From: a virus
Virus record (IMG/VR): IMGVR_UViG_3300009514_000075
Coordinates: 1 to 28,354 of that record
DNA length: 28,354 bases
Strand: one strand, 5' to 3'
Below, piece after piece: positions 2,828 through 22,454 of the stretch. How positions within the stretch are numbered: the stretch's first letter is position 1; each line of letters opens with the position of its first letter. Under the pieces are notes generated by a model. The model ran no database searches. It was not told the origin of the DNA and was given only the letters and a program-made list of their open reading frames with translations. A program made the position numbers and the translations under genes.

Positions 2828-4314
2828 TATAAACCTCGTTGCTTTCGATAAGTTTGACGGGTCAAATCAATGAGCTGACTCATTTTAACTTTTCCTTTAT
2901 GTTTCTTAACAGCTGCCATAAAAACTCCCAATTTCGTTCCTGTTCCAGGCACAATATAATTCATTTTTTGTTGGTCTTTTTGTTGAATATAAGGCGCTAA
3001 TTCATTTGTAATTTTATTAGCATCCACCGGTTGGCCTGTCATGGTCCGCATATCTTTTAGACTTTTAGCATGGGATGCCACATACGACGCCCAAGAATCA
3101 AGATTTCTATAATCTATCCCATTATCTTCAACATTAATCGCGGGGGCGTCTTTCATATAGCCATTCCATAATCTATCAATATCAGTGCGATCTGTAATAC
3201 CCTGATTATGTAAAAATCCTACCATTTCTTGTTTTTCAAGAACCCGATGCGTCGCGGCATTCATCATATCAATAAGATGCTGCGCCGCTTCTGGTTTTTG
3301 CCAATCTGAAGGTTTCATTCCCTTAATCACCCCCAAAATAGCTCTGCCAGCTTGACCTACATGCGATAAATTTTGGAATTTCTGCAAATAAAGTTTATTT
3401 AAGGCTGCTTTTAATTCTTGACCTTGTGCGGTCGTAAAATTAGTCATCGTGGGAGTGAGTCCCGTCATCGCCTTGTTTAAAGCACCCTGAACTTGCTGAA
3501 GATCTCCCATTAAATCCTGCGCTTTATCTGCATTCTGGTTAACCGTCGTTAAATAAGCTTCATTTTCTTTTGCTTCGGGGCCAAATTGTGCTTGTGCGGC
3601 TGGACTAAATTGTTGTTGATATATTTGCTGTTGTTGCGCGGCAATTTGTTGGGGAGACAATGTTGACATTGGCTGCGGCGTTGTGGGAAGGGATTCTTGT
3701 CCTCCTATAGACTGAGAGGGTGGGGTCTGTAAATCAGCAGCAGTCGCCGCTGAAGGAGCATTTGGATCTCTCGCAGATGACTGAACTGGCGACGTTGGAG
3801 TAGAAACCGGAGGTGCTCCAGTCGGAACTTGTGGCATCGAAGGGACGCCCTGTGACTGAGTTTGGGAAGCAGGCTGTGATAAAGCACCACCGGCCTGCAT
3901 GGCTTCAGTCGTTCCAGGGAGAGCAATATTATTTTTTATCAAAAAAGCGCCCACTATATTTTTTTGTTGGGGCGTTAATTTTCCAAACCAATCGGACTGC
4001 GTTTGTTGAGAATGCCAACCCGTTAATACTTCATATTGTTTTTGAACTATATTAGCATCTGCCTCAGCCGATTTAGTTCTAGGATCATTGGGACCATATT
4101 TCTGAAGATTATAGAAATAATTCTGATGCGCTCGTACTAAAGGCGATTGGCCGGACGCACCCCCTCCTAACGCCGCTTGCTGTTTAGCCGCAGCCAGGAT
4201 CCCTTGTGCTTGAGCAGTTTTTATTGTTTTGTAAGCATCAATCGCCGCGCCCACGGGATCACCCTGAGGCGCTTGCAATAAAAGTCCATAATTGGGTGTG
4301 GGTAATGCTGGCAT
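2827..4314 (-). CDS. P22 gp20-like DNA ejection protein (internal virion protein)
   Basis: A 495-residue protein in the middle of the ejection cluster. Residues about 140-245 form a low-complexity linker rich in Gln, Pro, Ser and Thr, which is common in ejection proteins that must unfold to pass through the portal and tail. The N-terminus is Ala/Gln-rich and helical. The C-terminal 200 residues are charged and helical and end in a basic tail. There is no enzymatic motif. It sits between the gp7-like gene (32-base gap) and the gp16-like gene (one-base overlap), matching the P22 order 7-20-16. No sequence signature is decisive; the call is by synteny and composition. Confidence 0.55.
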   Translation of the reverse strand: MPALPTPNYGLLLQAPQGDPVGAAIDAYKTIKTAQAQGILAAAKQQAALGGGASGQSPLVRAHQNYFYNLQKYGPNDPRTKSAEADANIVQKQYEVLTGWHSQQTQSDWFGKLTPQQKNIVGAFLIKNNIALPGTTEAMQAGGALSQPASQTQSQGVPSMPQVPTGAPPVSTPTSPVQSSARDPNAPSAATAADLQTPPSQSIGGQESLPTTPQPMSTLSPQQIAAQQQQIYQQQFSPAAQAQFGPEAKENEAYLTTVNQNADKAQDLMGDLQQVQGALNKAMTGLTPTMTNFTTAQGQELKAALNKLYLQKFQNLSHVGQAGRAILGVIKGMKPSDWQKPEAAQHLIDMMNAATHRVLEKQEMVGFLHNQGITDRTDIDRLWNGYMKDAPAINVEDNGIDYRNLDSWASYVASHAKSLKDMRTMTGQPVDANKITNELAPYIQQKDQQKMNYIVPGTGTKLGVFMAAVKKHKGKVKMSQLIDLTRQTYRKQRGL

Positions 4315-4346
4315 TTCAAATCTCCTTATTTATTAAGGCCTATTAA

Positions 4347-5039
4347 TCATTTGGCTGCAAATGCTCCTGCCGCTTCTCCAAGCATCTTTTCAAAAGCCGC
4401 TAATTTTTGTGCATCTGAAGCATAACCACCCATAATCGCATTCGCCGCTCCTTGGCCTAAGGCCCCATAAGCACCGCCAATATCACCGGCATATTGCGCA
4501 CCTAATCCGCCTAAATATTGTCCTGTTCCTAAAGCGCCTTGGAAAGCTTGTCCCGCCGCTTGTTGACCGCCCTGCGCTAATGCCCCCAATCGATTTTGAT
4601 ATTGACCATATTCTTGATTGGCCATTTGCTGTGCATAGTTTTGCATCTGCCTCGCAGTACCCGTAGACCCTAAAAGTCCGCGCGCTGCCGCATTCTGCTG
4701 AATCCCTTGTAATCCTTGCTGAAGTGCAAATTGATAACCGGGACTGGCTTGAAATTTATTCACTGCACTTTGCTGTGCTTCGCCAGCGCCTTGTGGCGCA
4801 CCCGCCACGCCAGGTTGTCCCCCTCCTAATCCCATCGAAGCGGCTAATTGATTTTCAGCCTGCGCACCCCGCTGCATATAAGGATTAAGAAAACCAAGTC
4901 CTTGCCCATACATTCCTAATACATCCCCGCGCCCTTGTTGCCAGAATTTCTGATAAGCATCAATTGCTTTCTGAATCTCATTACTATAAGCGCTTTGTGC
5001 TTGGCCTGCGGCTTCACTGCCGCCGTCGAAAAGTCCCAT
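4347..5039 (-). CDS. P22 gp7-like DNA transfer / ejection protein
   Basis: A 230-residue protein very rich in Ala, Gly and Gln. Its central block (Ser-Pro-Gly-Tyr-Gln-Phe-Ala-Leu-Gln-Gln-Gly around residue 100, then Ala-Ala-Arg-Gly-Leu-Leu-Gly-Ser at about 118-126, then a Tyr-Gln-Asn-Arg-Leu motif) is a pattern I recognise from podovirus DNA transfer proteins located just before the large ejection genes. The N-terminus begins Met-Gly-Leu-Phe-Asp with Gly/Ser, also typical of that group. It is a likely virion component delivered with the DNA. The start has a GGAG site just upstream. It is the best-supported member of the ejection cluster by sequence; identity to P22 gp7 itself would be low. 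Confidence 0.65.
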   Translation of the reverse strand: MGLFDGGSEAAGQAQSAYSNEIQKAIDAYQKFWQQGRGDVLGMYGQGLGFLNPYMQRGAQAENQLAASMGLGGGQPGVAGAPQGAGEAQQSAVNKFQASPGYQFALQQGLQGIQQNAAARGLLGSTGTARQMQNYAQQMANQEYGQYQNRLGALAQGGQQAAGQAFQGALGTGQYLGGLGAQYAGDIGGAYGALGQGAANAIMGGYASDAQKLAAFEKMLGEAAGAFAAK

Positions 5040-5050
5040 AGGGCATCTCC

Positions 5051-5857
5051 TTATGCTTTATACCATCGTATAATCATGGCTTCTTGTAGAATATCATTAT
5101 CGGCCGTTCCTTGGCCGGTAAAAAATAGTTCTAAATCCGTTGTGAGGTTTTCCGATACGGAAAAATTAATAGATTCGTCCAATACTAAAGGATCACTGGA
5201 TATTATTTCGACATTTCCTTTTTCTGTCGCACTTCCAGTACGAGCAATAATAGCTTTGACATGCCAACTACTATTTCTCGCTCTTATTGCTCCGGTATTA
5301 TACAACACAGTCGACCCGAATTTCAGCTTTAATGTCTTATTATTTGCGTTATTTGCAAAACTTCCCCACGCTTCTAATTCTAAATAAGTACCATTCGTAT
5401 TTAATGTATTTCCCAAAATGGTATCCGACGCTAAGGTAGTTTCGGCCGCTAAGGTGGTCCCATGTTGCGTAAAATCAACAAATAAGTTGCCGCCTAAATT
5501 CACCACATCTGAAGAAACACCCCCTGGCAGCGTGATGGCTGAATCGGATATCGTCACTCCATCAATCGTTCCACCCGTAATGGCGACATTATTGGCATTT
5601 TGAACCGACATCGTGCCTAAATCAGCACTATTCGCTTTTGCATTCAGTTGAGTCTGAACCGTCGTTGAGGTAGTAATCCCCACCATGGTATTGAGTTCAG
5701 CGACGGAGGCTTTTAATCCTCTTAAATTAACGACCGCCGGTAAAAGACCGCCGCTTCGTTTCCACATCGCATATTGAAAACGATAGACATGATCATTATC
5801 GTAATGCTCCGTCTTTGGCGGCTCTAATACCTCATTGTGAATATCGGGCGCAGCCAC
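5051..5857 (-). CDS. Trimeric tail needle- or short-fibre-like protein
   Basis: A 268-residue protein in the position of the P22 tail needle gp26, between the gp10-like hub and the gp7-like ejection gene. Residues about 45-75 are heptad-like and could form a trimeric coil (Leu-Arg-Gly-Leu-Lys-Ala-Ser-Val-Ala-Glu-Leu). Residues 80-110 contain the Ala-Ile-Thr-Gly-Gly-Thr-Ile-Asp-Gly motif seen in many fibre shafts. Residues about 150-268 are beta-rich with conserved Trp and resemble the globular tip domain of many phage fibres. A shaft plus knob would fit a plug that closes the portal channel, as in needle proteins with C-terminal knobs. Its start overlaps the gp10-like stop by one base. Needle against side fibre cannot be separated from sequence alone. 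Confidence 0.55.
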   Translation of the reverse strand: MAAPDIHNEVLEPPKTEHYDNDHVYRFQYAMWKRSGGLLPAVVNLRGLKASVAELNTMVGITTSTTVQTQLNAKANSADLGTMSVQNANNVAITGGTIDGVTISDSAITLPGGVSSDVVNLGGNLFVDFTQHGTTLAAETTLASDTILGNTLNTNGTYLELEAWGSFANNANNKTLKLKFGSTVLYNTGAIRARNSSWHVKAIIARTGSATEKGNVEIISSDPLVLDESINFSVSENLTTDLELFFTGQGTADNDILQEAMIIRWYKA

Positions 5858-16153: not shown

Positions 16154-16513
16154 TTAATAGCATTCTTTATTTCCTTGCACGATGCCGATAATGTCTTCGT
16201 CGATAATGGCACGATAGACATCTTCTTCATCGGCTTCTACATCTAATAAAGCATCAGGCGTGATCAAACGCCCCGAGTATTTTGAGAAATAGACTTCATC
16301 ACCCACTTTGACCGGGATTTCTTTTCCGTCGGGATAAAAAGAAAAAGCGAGATCGCCCAGCGATATCACGGTGCCAGTTTGGTAATCACTCAAGTTTTTC
16401 TTAGAAAGTTCGTGCGGTTTAATTAAACAAGTTCCCTTAATTTTTTCTTCCTTTTTCTTCGTCAGTCTCACGAGAATAAAACAAGAAATCGGTGTAAATT
16501 TAGGCATCTCCAT
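16154..16513 (-). CDS. Phage GroES-like co-chaperonin (Cpn10)
   Basis: A 119-residue protein with the GroES beta-barrel pattern. Pro-Ile-Ser-Cys-Phe-Ile-Leu-Val-Arg lies near the start, followed by a Lys/Glu-rich stretch and Gly-Thr-Cys-Leu-Ile-Lys-Pro at the place of the mobile loop (about 24-40). Then come Gly-Thr-Val-Ile-Ser-Leu-Gly and Val-Lys-Val-Gly-Asp-Glu-Val-Tyr-Phe-Ser-Lys-Tyr-Ser-Gly, and last Ile-Ile-Asp-Glu-Asp-Ile-Ile-Gly-Ile-Val. It is expected to cap host GroEL and help fold the coat protein, as T4 gp31 does. It overlaps the preceding 95-residue gene by 14 bases and lies 9 bases before the scaffold gene, so it is part of the head operon. No GroEL gene is in the window. Confidence 0.8.
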   Translation of the reverse strand: MEMPKFTPISCFILVRLTKKKEEKIKGTCLIKPHELSKKNLSDYQTGTVISLGDLAFSFYPDGKEIPVKVGDEVYFSKYSGRLITPDALLDVEADEEDVYRAIIDEDIIGIVQGNKECY

Positions 16514-16813: not shown

Positions 16814-19081
16814 TTATCCCTCCGGTTCTTGTGGAGAGGCTTCCTCAGACTGAGGATTCATCATTATTGGACCTCCTTGGCCCGAACTGGTCGGGGCGCC
16901 CTCGATCGCGCCAGATAGGGATGCTCCAGCATTTTGAGGCGCCTGATTTAAAGAAGGTCCAATCCCGCTCTGAACGCCAAGTAGCGTCTCGGCTTCCTGA
17001 ATTCTTTGTTTGATATCAGAACCATACGGGTCGGCATAAATCTCAGATTCAGCTAATGACGAAATCTTCTCTTCTTGCTTTAGCGACTGATCGATGAGTT
17101 GTTGCTGACCCGTCAGTTCTAACTGAGCTAATGTATTCATTGAATTAATCTTGCTTGAAGCAATTTGACTCGCTGCTATTTCTGCTTCAATCTTCAAACG
17201 GCGCTCTTCCATATCTAATTGCAATGCATCCAGATCTTTTTGCATGATAATTTCATGCCCTTTCATCTGATTATGCGAAGTTTCAGATTTTATCTTATCA
17301 ATCTCTGCCATCGTCTTGAGAACCTCGGGGGGTGGTGGTGCATTGGGATCCGGCGGCGTCAAAACCTTATCAATATTAGGCACTTCTCTCACTTCTAAGA
17401 AACGTTTCACGACCTCATATTGATTAACGCCCGGGAGTTGCATTAAATTCATCAAAAGTTGAGATTGGGCAATCCGTTTTGCCTCACTTCCTAAATTAGG
17501 ATCCGCCACCGGAAAAATCGCAAAACTCTCCGCTTCTGGCATGCGATAATCATCTGGCATAATCTGACCACTGGCCACCGAGTTCTTAAAATATTGCGTT
17601 CCCGATAAATACTTCTTGTTCATCTCATAGAGCTTTTCAAACTCTTTTTTCATCGATTCATACACCCGCAATTGAATCGAATCAAAGACCTTCTGGCCTT
17701 GTTCTAACAAATTCTGAACGGTCGTCGCCGGCGTATTCGGTGCAGGTTGTTGGCCAATCATCGTATCGCTCACGGCCGAAATTTCTTGACCGCCCTGCAG
17801 TAATAATTCTAATAGCTGAAATAAAACCGGGGAGGGTGGACTCACAGGTAAAGGGACAATATTAGATTTTAAATCCATCCCATTCGTCTCCACGCGTTTC
17901 CATTCGCCCGGTTTAAAATCAAGTACCTCTTTCTGCATTCGCACACCGCGCCCAATAAAACCACCGGCGCCATTAGCCAATGTGCCGGCATCTAATAACT
18001 GATTGATGATCGTATTTACGGTTTCATTGAGGGGCATTAAAATGCGACCAAATCCTAAGCCGTAAAAATCACCATCGGGCGAAGGAATAAATCGATAGTG
18101 CGTAAAATGCTGAATCGGTTCAATTCTAATAAACTCCGGTTTGTCTTCATAAAATATAAAACTGCTTTCATCATAACGGGCGACAATCCTTAAAACTTTT
18201 TCAGTCGCTTTATGGACGGTAATAATATAAGGCTCTGAATAACCGTCTTCATCTAAATCAAGATAGGTGTGCTGTTCGTATAATACATGAATATTATTTT
18301 CTTCTTCCGATTCGTTCTCTTCCTCGGCATAAATAGTGTCTGGATTGATCGACAAATTATCGTCTTCGTCCGCGGGACTATCGCCCAATTCTTCTAACGG
18401 GATCTTGGTAAAAAATCCCATCCGCATTTTTTCGATCAGATCATTGCTCGAATAATAAAGCACATGGGTAATGCGACTGGCTTCATTTAAAGAGGGCGTC
18501 CGAATATTAATAATGACATCATCGGGCAGACAGAGCTCACTTTCGGGCATCTGATTTAAATCATCCCAATATGTTTTTTTAAACACACTGCCGGTCAACG
18601 GTAAAATCATGAGCAATTTATCGAGATCTTCTCGCCAATGATGGCTCATCTGGAGCAACTGAAAAGACATATGCGCCGCTTGACGTTTCGCTAATGCTTC
18701 AAGCTCACCGGTTGGATCGGGTTGCATGACATCTACAAAGACGGCTTGATCGCCCTTGATCATTTCAGGATTAGTACGCGCATTGTACTGAACACACGCC
18801 GTGAGCACTAACGGATATTTGACGGACGCGGCTTTGGGCCACGGATAATTTTTTACTTCTTTGAACTGCTTGGCAAGCTTCACCGCACTTTGCATTTGAC
18901 GGACCCATTCACGCCGACTGCCGTCATCATGGATAGTATTTTGGATCACTTGTGATCCGATATTAACAAGCTTTTCTGATTTAATTTGACTGCAAAGATT
19001 AGGGGAAGAAATGAAATCTCTAAGTTTTGAAGGAATACGGGCGTTGTTACCGGCGCTGTTAACTGTTGCCATCCTTGGCAC
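16814..19081 (-). CDS. Portal protein, P22 gp1-like
   Basis: A 755-residue protein downstream of the large terminase, about the size of P22 gp1 (725). It shows the alpha/beta clip-wing-stem order: an N-terminal helical region, a conserved Gly-Asp-Phe-Tyr-Gly-Leu-Gly-Phe-Gly-Arg motif near residue 340, and Leu-Asn-Glu-Thr-Val-Asn-Thr-Ile-Ile-Asn. Next come a Met-Ile-Gly-Gln-Gln-Pro region and a long C-terminal helix rich in Glu, Gln and Lys (about 580-680) that may form the barrel seen in P22. The last 50 residues are Gly/Ser/Pro-rich and disordered. It forms the dodecameric channel at one vertex and binds terminase and the gp4-like adaptor. Confidence 0.85.
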   Translation of the reverse strand: MPRMATVNSAGNNARIPSKLRDFISSPNLCSQIKSEKLVNIGSQVIQNTIHDDGSRREWVRQMQSAVKLAKQFKEVKNYPWPKAASVKYPLVLTACVQYNARTNPEMIKGDQAVFVDVMQPDPTGELEALAKRQAAHMSFQLLQMSHHWREDLDKLLMILPLTGSVFKKTYWDDLNQMPESELCLPDDVIINIRTPSLNEASRITHVLYYSSNDLIEKMRMGFFTKIPLEELGDSPADEDDNLSINPDTIYAEEENESEEENNIHVLYEQHTYLDLDEDGYSEPYIITVHKATEKVLRIVARYDESSFIFYEDKPEFIRIEPIQHFTHYRFIPSPDGDFYGLGFGRILMPLNETVNTIINQLLDAGTLANGAGGFIGRGVRMQKEVLDFKPGEWKRVETNGMDLKSNIVPLPVSPPSPVLFQLLELLLQGGQEISAVSDTMIGQQPAPNTPATTVQNLLEQGQKVFDSIQLRVYESMKKEFEKLYEMNKKYLSGTQYFKNSVASGQIMPDDYRMPEAESFAIFPVADPNLGSEAKRIAQSQLLMNLMQLPGVNQYEVVKRFLEVREVPNIDKVLTPPDPNAPPPPEVLKTMAEIDKIKSETSHNQMKGHEIIMQKDLDALQLDMEERRLKIEAEIAASQIASSKINSMNTLAQLELTGQQQLIDQSLKQEEKISSLAESEIYADPYGSDIKQRIQEAETLLGVQSGIGPSLNQAPQNAGASLSGAIEGAPTSSGQGGPIMMNPQSEEASPQEPEG

Positions 19082-19112: not shown

Positions 19113-21122
19113 TTAATACCCACCAATCTCACTGCGTCCCTCATCATTATCTATCCGACGAATGGTTTCGGGATGCGCCCGATCATAGACATAATTTCGG
19201 TAGTCCCATACCGCTGCTTCTAATGACTGCAGAAATCGTGCGTATTGATTATGAACGGGTTTCGGATTGGCTGACATCATGGAATGACTCCCAGGATTTT
19301 TATAACTGTACCCACCTCTAAACCCTTCTTGTATCTGAGGACATTGATTAGACACAATATTTAAAAGTGGTGTTCCTTTGTTCAGTTTTACCAGGAGCGA
19401 TTGTACATTATTTATCATAGATGACAAGTCAATGTTGGATAAATCACTATAATATTCCTCATATTGATCCATCGTCTCGGGCCAGTTTCTATGCGCATGA
19501 TCGGATCGAATATAAAAGTCCGGTAAAATCCCCGGGAAATAATCTTCTAAAAATGGCATCACAAAATGATCCATCAGATCGGTTAACGACGATGATTCTG
19601 AATGTTCGGCCAACACATACAACGAATCATAATCATTAATGCCGACAATGGAACACGTGAAAAAATTGTCAATATAAATGCCGACCCGGAGCGACACAAT
19701 AAACAGTCTGTCCCAATTTGTCACGGACTGCGCATGGATGAGATCATTATAATCGGGATAAACTTGGAGAACATTGGCGTATCTTTTAGTCAAATAATTA
19801 ATCGCCATCGAAAAAGAGTCCACATCATCATCATGCAGCCCATTGGGAAAAACCCTGAGGTTATCCAGGAAATCTTTTAGCCAAATCGATTTTTTTGGAA
19901 GAAAGACACGGCCGCTTACAATTGTATCCGTTGCTGCTGACGCACGGGAACCTTTATCCCTATCCACTTTAACCGGCACAATATTTAAACGACTATCAAG
20001 TTGTAATTCTTGAATGATGCTTTGACCCGACGCCTTATCTTCAATCAAGACCACCCCAGGATTGTATTGATAAGCGAGCTGCTGCACTTGAACTTTGAGC
20101 TTCGGGAAGATGAGTTTTCCTTTCCATCGATCCAGTAAATAAAAACCGTCGCGTCTCACCCCCCATGTCGTACAGACATTAAAGTCATTTTCTTCTTTTG
20201 TCTTAAAGGCCGTGTCCCAGGACTGAATAATCTGTTCAAATTCTCCCTCTACTTCTTCATAGTAGTTAAAATGATCAATCGGTATCACATTACCCTCCGG
20301 AGTGTATGGTCTTTGTTGATACAGTGCTTCAAACTCGCGTGGATTCGCTTTTTGATAGGCTTTTAAATAAGAGGCGGAATACCGTTCAGGCCATAGTGCC
20401 TCGCCTACGTCACGTCCTAAGGGGTCATTTTCCATGGCCAACGCGGGAAAATCAATCACACGCCAATTTTCATGAGCATGCCGTTCTAACAATCTACCCG
20501 CAAGGTCATCTTCGTGCCATTTTGTCATGATCAACACGATCGCACCGTTAGGTTCCAAGCGCGTATAGCAATCCGTTAAATACCAGTCCCATACCCGATC
20601 ACGGTAAACTTTACTATTGGCTTCTTCCGCACTTTTAACCGGATCATCAATTAAGATGAGATTACCGCCTTTGCCGGTGATCCCGGACCCTACCGATGCC
20701 GCGCGATAAATACCGCCCTCAATCGTCCCCCATTCCTGCGCCGATTGATTTTCTGGATCAAGATTAAGGCGTCTTCGGGCAATCGTGCGGCTCGCTCTTG
20801 AAAAAGAACTCGATAAATCTTTCCCATACGAGGCAATAATTAATGTCCAGGTGGGGTTATTTTCTAAACAATAGACTGGAAAGCGAATCGTCGTGAGCGC
20901 TGATTTCCCATGACGCGGCGGTTCAAAGATCATGAGCCGTTTGCATTTTCCTTCTAAGACATCTTGGAGCGCTTCTTGCGTGGCCTTTAAATGCGGTTTA
21001 TCCCATTCATAGGTGGGCGTCACTATTTTGAGCCAGTCATGAAAGGAAGGAACCTCACCCCGGATATCTTCTTCAAGATAATGCTTTTTTAAAAGCGCGA
21101 TCTTATCCTTTGATATCTTCAT
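19113..21122 (-). CDS. terL: Terminase large subunit with extra C-terminal nuclease-like domain
   Basis: A 669-residue packaging motor. The ATPase domain has Walker A Glu-Pro-Pro-Arg-His-Gly-Lys-Ser (67-74), Walker B Leu-Ile-Leu-Ile-Asp-Asp (155-160) and a Trp-His-Glu-Asp-Asp-Leu motif (202-207). The RNase H-like nuclease domain follows with Asp303 (Ser-Trp-Asp-Thr-Ala), Glu361/Asp362 and Asp431-433 (His-Asp-Asp-Asp-Val-Asp), and ends near residue 450, where most relatives of this type stop. About 200 residues remain. Residues 470-645 read like a second terminase nuclease domain of another lineage, with Pro-Leu-Leu, Cys-Pro and Gly-Phe-Arg-Gly-Gly-Tyr-Ser-Tyr-Lys near 585-608. Two of its three expected acidic residues are replaced. 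It lies 26 bases after the 137-residue gene and 31 bases before portal. Confidence 0.85.
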   Translation of the reverse strand: MKISKDKIALLKKHYLEEDIRGEVPSFHDWLKIVTPTYEWDKPHLKATQEALQDVLEGKCKRLMIFEPPRHGKSALTTIRFPVYCLENNPTWTLIIASYGKDLSSSFSRASRTIARRRLNLDPENQSAQEWGTIEGGIYRAASVGSGITGKGGNLILIDDPVKSAEEANSKVYRDRVWDWYLTDCYTRLEPNGAIVLIMTKWHEDDLAGRLLERHAHENWRVIDFPALAMENDPLGRDVGEALWPERYSASYLKAYQKANPREFEALYQQRPYTPEGNVIPIDHFNYYEEVEGEFEQIIQSWDTAFKTKEENDFNVCTTWGVRRDGFYLLDRWKGKLIFPKLKVQVQQLAYQYNPGVVLIEDKASGQSIIQELQLDSRLNIVPVKVDRDKGSRASAATDTIVSGRVFLPKKSIWLKDFLDNLRVFPNGLHDDDVDSFSMAINYLTKRYANVLQVYPDYNDLIHAQSVTNWDRLFIVSLRVGIYIDNFFTCSIVGINDYDSLYVLAEHSESSSLTDLMDHFVMPFLEDYFPGILPDFYIRSDHAHRNWPETMDQYEEYYSDLSNIDLSSMINNVQSLLVKLNKGTPLLNIVSNQCPQIQEGFRGGYSYKNPGSHSMMSANPKPVHNQYARFLQSLEAAVWDYRNYVYDRAHPETIRRIDNDEGRSEIGGY

Positions 21123-22028: not shown

Positions 22029-22454
22029 CTATTTCTTACTATCTTTGTAAGCTTCCCACATCTCATTGACCATGGCTTCCATTTGACCGCTCTCTATTTT
22101 AGCGATTATCCCTAACTGCCTGATCACCCCGTCCGCTTCGCCCGGCGTCAATGCCCCTTTCACAACCTGATCAATCACCGATCTCGCCTGTTCGAGGACC
22201 GTTTCCCCCTCAAGCCTAAATTCGTCCGGCAATACCTCATGCTTAATCGGCGGCGCATACAATCGTTCGACAATGATATCCGCGGCCTTCATATCACCCC
22301 CCATCGCTGAATCATAGATAAGCCCTAGAAGATCCCTCGCCATCTCTTCGTTAATGACCTTCTTAATAAATGCTCTTGAATGCACAAAGTTCTTGTTCTT
22401 GGAGCCCACCGGTCTTCCCTTAGGATTGGCAATATCTCCTGTTTTAAACGTCAT
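22029..22454 (-). CDS. terS: Terminase small subunit (DUF5681-like)
   Basis: A 141-residue protein whose N-terminus has Asn-Pro-Lys-Gly-Arg-Pro-Val-Gly-Ser-Lys-Asn-Lys (10-21), the DNA-contacting signature of a common phage small terminase family. It is followed by helical segments (Phe-Ile-Lys-Lys-Val-Ile-Asn-Glu-Glu and Ala-Ala-Asp-Ile-Ile-Val-Glu-Arg-Leu) typical of the oligomerisation part. The small subunit recognises the packaging site and hands DNA to the large subunit. It is the first gene of the leftward late operon, about 90 bases from the TTGACT/TAGTAT promoter. A GGAG site precedes the ATG. Confidence 0.7.
   Translation of the reverse strand: MTFKTGDIANPKGRPVGSKNKNFVHSRAFIKKVINEEMARDLLGLIYDSAMGGDMKAADIIVERLYAPPIKHEVLPDEFRLEGETVLEQARSVIDQVVKGALTPGEADGVIRQLGIIAKIESGQMEAMVNEMWEAYKDSKK

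What the first reader, a model, noticed from the sequence alone, without database searches (positions are those of the whole stretch)
19113..19740. Large terminase carries a second, degenerate nuclease-like domain
TerL has a complete ATPase and nuclease (Asp303, Glu361/Asp362, Asp431-433) ending near residue 450, then about 200 more residues. Residues 470-645 follow the layout of a terminase nuclease of another family: a Leu-Tyr-Val-Leu-Ala-Glu-His strand, a Pro-Phe-Leu-Glu-Asp-Tyr-Phe-Pro-Gly segment, Asp541, then Cys-Pro and Gly-Phe-Arg-Gly-Gly-Tyr-Ser-Tyr-Lys. At the end, Asn-Gln-Tyr-Ala-Arg-Phe-Leu-Gln-Ser-Leu-Glu lines up without gaps with the usual Asn-x-Tyr-Ser-His-x-His-Asp-Ala-Leu-Gln, replacing the catalytic Asp with Gln. 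The first Asp also seems replaced by Arg. A tandem active plus inactive nuclease would be a new architecture for a packaging motor, perhaps a DNA- or portal-binding clamp.
Basis: partly seen in the sequence, partly recalled or inferred. Interest (0 to 1): 0.72.

Follow-up and report, generated by a model that had tools for sequence, protein, structure and literature searches.

The report
Phage packaging motor with two nucleases
This phage's DNA-packaging motor protein is a fusion of a complete motor and nuclease from one terminase family with a worn-out second nuclease from another family, whose last residues carry the tag found on every intact terminase we saw beside this type of portal, so the second nuclease probably survives as the adapter that plugs the motor into the capsid.

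Summary
Confirmed, with one correction. TerL (window 19113-21122, - strand, 669 aa) has a complete phrog_38-type ATPase and nuclease (residues 1-450). Fused in frame at 454 is a whole second terminase nuclease of another family (454-669). Profiles (46.6 bits; in a comparable test 25.8 against at most 5.7 for shuffles), an AlphaFold model (pLDDT 77.8, built on homologues) and structural alignment (D6E TerL nuclease Z 14.2, P22 13.1) all say RNase H-like TerL nuclease. It is degenerate: the invariant Ser-His-x-x-Asp is Ala-Arg-x-x-Gln632.

New here: the tail ends in GRSEIGGY. All 30 intact TerLs from loci with closely related portals, from four mutually undetectable groups, end in GY, mostly R[SN]xx[TG]GY; only 2 of 153 TerLs without that portal end alike. 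The core's nearest kin lie beside no related portal; the tail's best matches have this portal type. Best reading: a terminase swap that kept the resident nuclease plus portal-docking tip as an adapter. Docking is inferred. Among 134 homologous TerLs only one other has a long C-terminal extension (unrelated). No report of a tandem-nuclease TerL was found.

The parts
19773..21122 (-). TerL residues 1-450: phrog_38-type ATPase plus first, complete nuclease (D303, E361, D431)
   Evidence: Pfam Terminase_6N and 6C; phrog_38 2.5e-103; catalytic residues invariant in A2
19743..19763 (-). Hinge motif VYPDYND (residues 454-460), the ATPase-nuclease hinge of the second terminase family; fusion point
   Evidence: Aligns to VYPQYND/VYPEYND at the same place in L239/L290/L356-type TerLs
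19140..19763 (-). Second, degenerate TerL nuclease domain (residues 454-661)
   Evidence: 46.6-bit profile match, AF2 pLDDT 77.8, VIA Z 14.2 to D6E TerL nuclease and 13.1 to P22
19668..19670 (-). D485, position of the first catalytic Asp, retained
   Evidence: 25/25 family members have Asp here
19500..19502 (-). D541, position of the second catalytic Asp, retained
   Evidence: 25/25 family members have Asp here
19227..19229 (-). Q632, in place of the third catalytic Asp, in a motif A628-R629-x-x-Q632 instead of S-H-x-x-D
   Evidence: Asp, Ser and His are each 25/25 in the family
19116..19139 (-). C-terminal peptide GRSEIGGY (662-669), proposed portal-docking tip
   Evidence: All 30 intact TerLs of the portal group end GY, 2/153 without that portal; L235 TerL ends identically
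16814..19081 (-). Portal protein, SU10_portal type, directly downstream of TerL; presumed partner of the C-terminal peptide
   Evidence: Pfam PF23899 5.2e-24, phrog_1216

Best explanation
The protein is a chimeric large terminase. Shown: residues 1-450 are a complete phrog_38-type ATPase-nuclease; residues 454-669 are a whole C-terminal nuclease domain of a different TerL family, from its hinge motif to its last residue, with the third metal-binding Asp and the Ser-His beside it lost. Inferred history: an ancestor with this SU10-like portal had a single-nuclease TerL; a foreign TerL was recombined in ahead of the hinge, lost its own C-terminal end, and the resident nuclease stayed as its tail. 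Inferred mechanism: the first nuclease cuts DNA; the second domain is held at the portal by the GRSEIGGY tip and works as a structural adapter that seats a foreign motor on the resident portal. With no second nuclease activity needed, the active site decayed while the fold and tip were kept.
For: Second domain is a TerL nuclease: tblastn, profiles, BLASTP to the L239 TerL starting at the hinge, 30% identity, 9e-13, loci scan E 2e-10, AF2 with homologues, VIA Z 14.2, BFVD top hits that carry a name are mostly TerLs. Degenerate: retains 19 of 44 conserved positions, while single family members keep 33 of 42 or more. Portal-specific tip: 30 of 33 TerL ORFs in loci with a portal of 300 bits or more end in GY, and the three others are fragments; 2 of 153 elsewhere; four TerL groups. 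The loci were retrieved by portal or TerL similarity, not by that ending. Discordant kin: the core tree places residues 1-450 outside the YY-ending TerLs and beside TerLs from loci with no related portal, while the top tail matches carry this portal type; L356 has homologous portal, decoration and capsid genes with the plain single-nuclease TerL. Portal contact by TerL C-termini is proposed for D6E and reported for T4 (PMC5727402).
Against: No contact between the peptide and the portal was tested. Other TerLs of the portal group carry the same ending on a short linker without a second nuclease, so the fold itself is not needed for docking. The exact donor subfamily of the tail is unsettled: without hinge and tip the profile scores tie (35.3 against 35.4 bits), and the tail is a very long branch. 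The AF2 model used homologous nucleases, and the single-sequence model failed (pLDDT 35). Only one genome has this architecture, so selection on the tail cannot be measured.
Confidence: 0.6

Rival explanations
1. The second nuclease is a passive scar: only the terminal peptide works, and the 200 residues before it are a tolerated spacer that decays slowly because frameshifts would remove the tip.
For: Very long branch and loss of most conserved positions; related TerLs dock with a short linker only.
Against: Retained positions are well above what an unrelated sequence would show and include glycines, the Cys, GGY and the hinge; a confident fold core is predicted with homologues.
Confidence: 0.22
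2. The second nuclease still handles DNA: with D485 and D541 retained it binds DNA, or cleaves weakly, as a clamp or brake at the portal.
For: Two of three catalytic acids kept; the nuclease-dead phi29 gp16 C-terminal domain still binds dsDNA and a pRNA mimic with about 3 uM affinity (PMC7672431); SPP1 uses His at the third position, so that site is not always Asp.
Against: The third position is Gln and the neighbouring Ser-His is gone; many conserved glycines and basic residues of the family are lost.
Confidence: 0.12
3. Artefact: a misassembled metagenomic contig joins two phages inside terL.
For: The window is a single IMG/VR record with no close relative found.
Against: The join keeps the frame and falls exactly at a domain hinge; tail codon usage matches the rest of the phage (0.097 against 0.106 for the portal; random synonymous -0.22); a normal TerL end from another phage would have its active site.
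Confidence: 0.04
4. Internal duplication of the core nuclease.
For: Both are RNase H-like TerL nucleases.
Against: The tail carries motifs of another family (VYPxYND hinge, CP, GGYxY, NxY) and scores best with that family; the core carries HDDxVD.
Confidence: 0.02

Closest known systems
Single-nuclease TerLs of the BcepC6B / vB_CsaP_Ss1 type (L239, L290, L356; phrog_10250, phrog_6672, phrog_2)
   Same: Hinge VYPxYND, nuclease motifs and a GY end; the closest loci carry the same portal type
   Different: They have one, intact nuclease behind their own ATPase; here only the nuclease is present, decayed, behind another TerL
phrog_38 TerL (Aaphi23, Staphylococcus phage Lacachita, CRP-810, HTVC027P)
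   Same: ATPase and first nuclease, about 34-42% identity
   Different: They end about 24 residues after the nuclease, with other C-termini (YY, GWGx); the window has a whole second domain
phi29 gp16 C-terminal domain, a vestigial nuclease (PMC7672431)
   Same: RNase H-like TerL domain without an active site, kept for another role
   Different: phi29 has only that one domain and attaches to the capsid through pRNA; here it stands beside a complete nuclease
D6E large terminase C-terminal arm (PMC5727402) and T4 gp17
   Same: C-terminal tip after the nuclease proposed to bind the portal; the D6E nuclease is the best structural match
   Different: Single nuclease; the arm is on the active nuclease

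Membership tests
TerL (phrog_38 type) | ATPase domain followed by RNase H-like nuclease | tested here: met
   Residues 1-450: Terminase_6N, 6C, phrog_38 2.5e-103
TerL (phrog_38 type) | Catalytic acids of the first nuclease (D303, E361, D431) | tested here: met
   Invariant in alignment A2
TerL (phrog_38 type) | Protein ends shortly after the nuclease | tested here: not met
   219 residues after the core; median 24 in 134 homologues
TerL nuclease domain, BcepC6B/phrog_10250/phrog_2 group (tail) | Sequence homology over hinge to C-terminus | tested here: met
   46.6 bits, BLASTP from the hinge, loci E 2e-10
TerL nuclease domain, BcepC6B/phrog_10250/phrog_2 group (tail) | RNase H-like fold | tested here: met
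   AF2 model from 26 rows, VIA Z 14.2 D6E, 13.1 P22; the model rests on the homologues' alignment
TerL nuclease domain, BcepC6B/phrog_10250/phrog_2 group (tail) | Three catalytic Asp | tested here: not met
   D485, D541 kept; third is Q632
TerL nuclease domain, BcepC6B/phrog_10250/phrog_2 group (tail) | Nuclease activity | not testable with these tools
   Needs purified protein
Portal-docking C-terminus shared by TerLs of this portal group | R[SN]xx[TG]GY-like end | tested here: met
   GRSEIGGY, as in L235
Portal-docking C-terminus shared by TerLs of this portal group | Physical contact with the portal | not testable with these tools
   Needs binding or cryo-EM data

The most novel reading that the evidence does not exclude
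Terminase motors are swapped between phages as modules, with a portal-specific C-terminal tip as the interchangeable plug; in this phage a foreign motor was fitted to the resident portal by keeping the whole resident nuclease, now catalytically dead, as a dedicated adapter domain, the first tandem-nuclease TerL.
Probability: 0.45. Interest if true: 0.75.

Novelty: new variant of a known kind. Interest (0 to 1): 0.64.

Why it matters
How a terminase recognises its own portal is a long-standing open point. A short C-terminal peptide that tracks the portal across unrelated TerL families gives a testable code for it, and this protein looks like a natural motor-swap experiment. It would also be, as far as I could find, the first TerL with an active and a degenerate nuclease in one chain, a parallel to the vestigial nuclease of phi29 gp16.

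Tried and rejected
Direct Pfam, PHROG and PDB sequence searches of the tail or protein: no useful hit for the tail. Close relatives of the whole protein or of the tail in viral contigs and genome contigs: none. Single-sequence AlphaFold of the tail: pLDDT 35, discarded. H35 (Pseudomonas phage KT1) and the Rhodococcus plasmid hit looked like chance. hhalign of the lone tail sequence against the Rhizobium-type nuclease: weak (probability 3.6), attributed to a profile-less query. A tree placing the tail within its family failed: branch length 6, position unusable. Foldseek alone against PDB gave no significant hit (best E 0.17; RB49 gp17 nuclease second), so the fold claim rests on VIA and BFVD plus sequence. 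Duplication of the core nuclease and contig misjoin were considered and are unlikely.

Full report
Observation. The large terminase is one continuous frame, 19113-21122 on the - strand, 669 aa. Residues 1-450 are a standard phrog_38 TerL: Terminase_6N 64-256, Terminase_6C 301-443, phrog_38 2.5e-103, with D303, E361 and D431 invariant among relatives. The remaining residues are unusual: of 134 TerLs aligned over the whole core, the median C-terminal extension is 24 residues, and only the window (219) and L094 (203) exceed 56. In 50,697 phage records and 72,556 plasmids no TerL match covers 80% of the protein.

What the tail is. Alone it has no Pfam hit and no informative PHROG hit. tblastn against phages gave as best hits the C-terminal nucleases of 450-aa Rhizobium phage TerLs, E 9e-3. 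A profile of that nuclease family scored the tail at 25.8 bits; the best of 2000 shuffles scored 5.7. Through portal relatives I then found closer kin, the TerL of L239: BLASTP 9e-13, aligned from VYPDYND/VYPQYND, the hinge between ATPase and nuclease in that family. A scan with this alignment gave loci at E 2e-10, and one in a Colwellia MAG contig, L356. A profile of that group scores 46.6 bits. Members are recognised by PHROGs as TerL (phrog_10250, phrog_6672, phrog_2), and L239 is related to the TerL of BcepC6B and Cronobacter phage Ss1. So the tail is a whole TerL nuclease, from hinge to last residue, of another family.

Fold. A single-sequence model failed (pLDDT 35). With 25 homologues the model has pLDDT 77.8 and pTM 0.76, in the order strand-strand-strand-helix-strand-helices-strand and a C-terminal helix. 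VIA-align gives D6E TerL Z 14.2 (157 residues, 3.3 A) and P22 13.1, and the top 31 rows are all terminases; named BFVD matches are mostly TerLs. Foldseek against PDB alone is not significant. The model depends on the homologues, so it supports the fold without being independent proof.

Degeneracy. Of 44 positions conserved in at least 88% of the family, the tail keeps 19; members keep 33 of 42 or more when left out in turn. D485 and D541 stand at the first and second catalytic Asp, just after strand 1 and just after strand 4. The third Asp, in the C-terminal helix, is Q632, and the preceding Ser-His is Ala-Arg. SPP1 has His at the third position (PMC7672431), so Gln makes activity improbable, not impossible.

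The C-terminal peptide. The window portal is of SU10_portal type. Among loci whose portal scores at least 300 bits against it, 30 of 33 TerL ORFs end in GY, typically GRSxxTGY; the three exceptions are fragments. Among 153 TerLs without such a portal two end in GY or GF, one of them a TerL at a contig end whose portal is out of view. The TerLs fall into four groups that do not detect one another. Phages with more distant portals of the clade have phrog_38 TerLs ending in YY (72 of 80). The Fisher p-value (7e-29) ignores relatedness and is not a true probability; the independent evidence is the four groups. The loci were found by portal or TerL similarity, never by this ending. The window's tail ends GRSEIGGY, identical to the TerL of L235.

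History. The core tree places residues 1-450 outside the YY group (a branch starred at 95), near TerLs from loci without a related portal. The best tail matches come from loci with the portal type, one of which (L356) has homologous portal (31%), decoration (30%) and capsid (43%) genes. The profile preference for this subgroup depends on the hinge: without hinge and tip the scores tie (35.3 and 35.4 bits), and the tree cannot place the tail. The simplest history is a terminase replacement upstream of the hinge of a resident TerL, which left the resident nuclease and tip in place. The foreign core has lost its own C-terminal end. This history is inference.

Mechanism. Shown: domain make-up, lost third Asp, portal-tracking tip. 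Inferred: the first nuclease cuts; the second domain is an adapter at the portal. TerL C-termini are proposed (D6E) or reported (T4) to meet the portal (PMC5727402), and phi29 gp16 shows a nuclease-dead domain kept for another role (PMC7672431). Whether the fold matters, or only the tip, is open.

Artefact check. Tail codon usage fits the phage (0.097; portal 0.106; core 0.074; random synonymous -0.22), and third-position GC is similar. The join is in frame at a domain hinge. A misassembly is unlikely but only reads could exclude it.

Literature. Seven full-text searches found no TerL with two nuclease domains; the library holds only open-licence papers.

Noticed in passing
L094:5908-7932 (+), residues 472-675: Another phrog_38 TerL with a 203-residue C-terminal extension that has no homologue in Pfam, PHROGs or phage records; by eye it has a strand-rich start and an ending (CPAVWSLALAY) that could be a second case of a decayed nuclease.
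   Followed up: partly
Loci L087, L101, L105, L109-L133, L241-L289: phrog_38 TerLs beside more distant portals of the same clade nearly all end in Tyr-Tyr, and Rhizobium-type TerLs end in GWT/AWT: the C-terminal peptide may be a general label of portal type.
   Followed up: partly
window 16154-16513 (-): Phage-encoded GroES-like co-chaperonin (Cpn10) between portal and scaffold-like genes; also annotated near this place in several portal relatives (L084, L085, L086, L087, L089).
   Followed up: no
window 22029-22454 (-): DUF5681 protein upstream of terL, a candidate small terminase.
   Followed up: no
L090 (Caulobacter phage GB2A) 2445-5248: Two ORFs annotated as large terminase with a methyltransferase gene between them, perhaps a split terL.
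   Followed up: no
L086 (MW202785) 4192-5824: TerL annotated as two adjacent ORFs, the second ending SRNRSTGY; a split or frameshifted gene.
   Followed up: no
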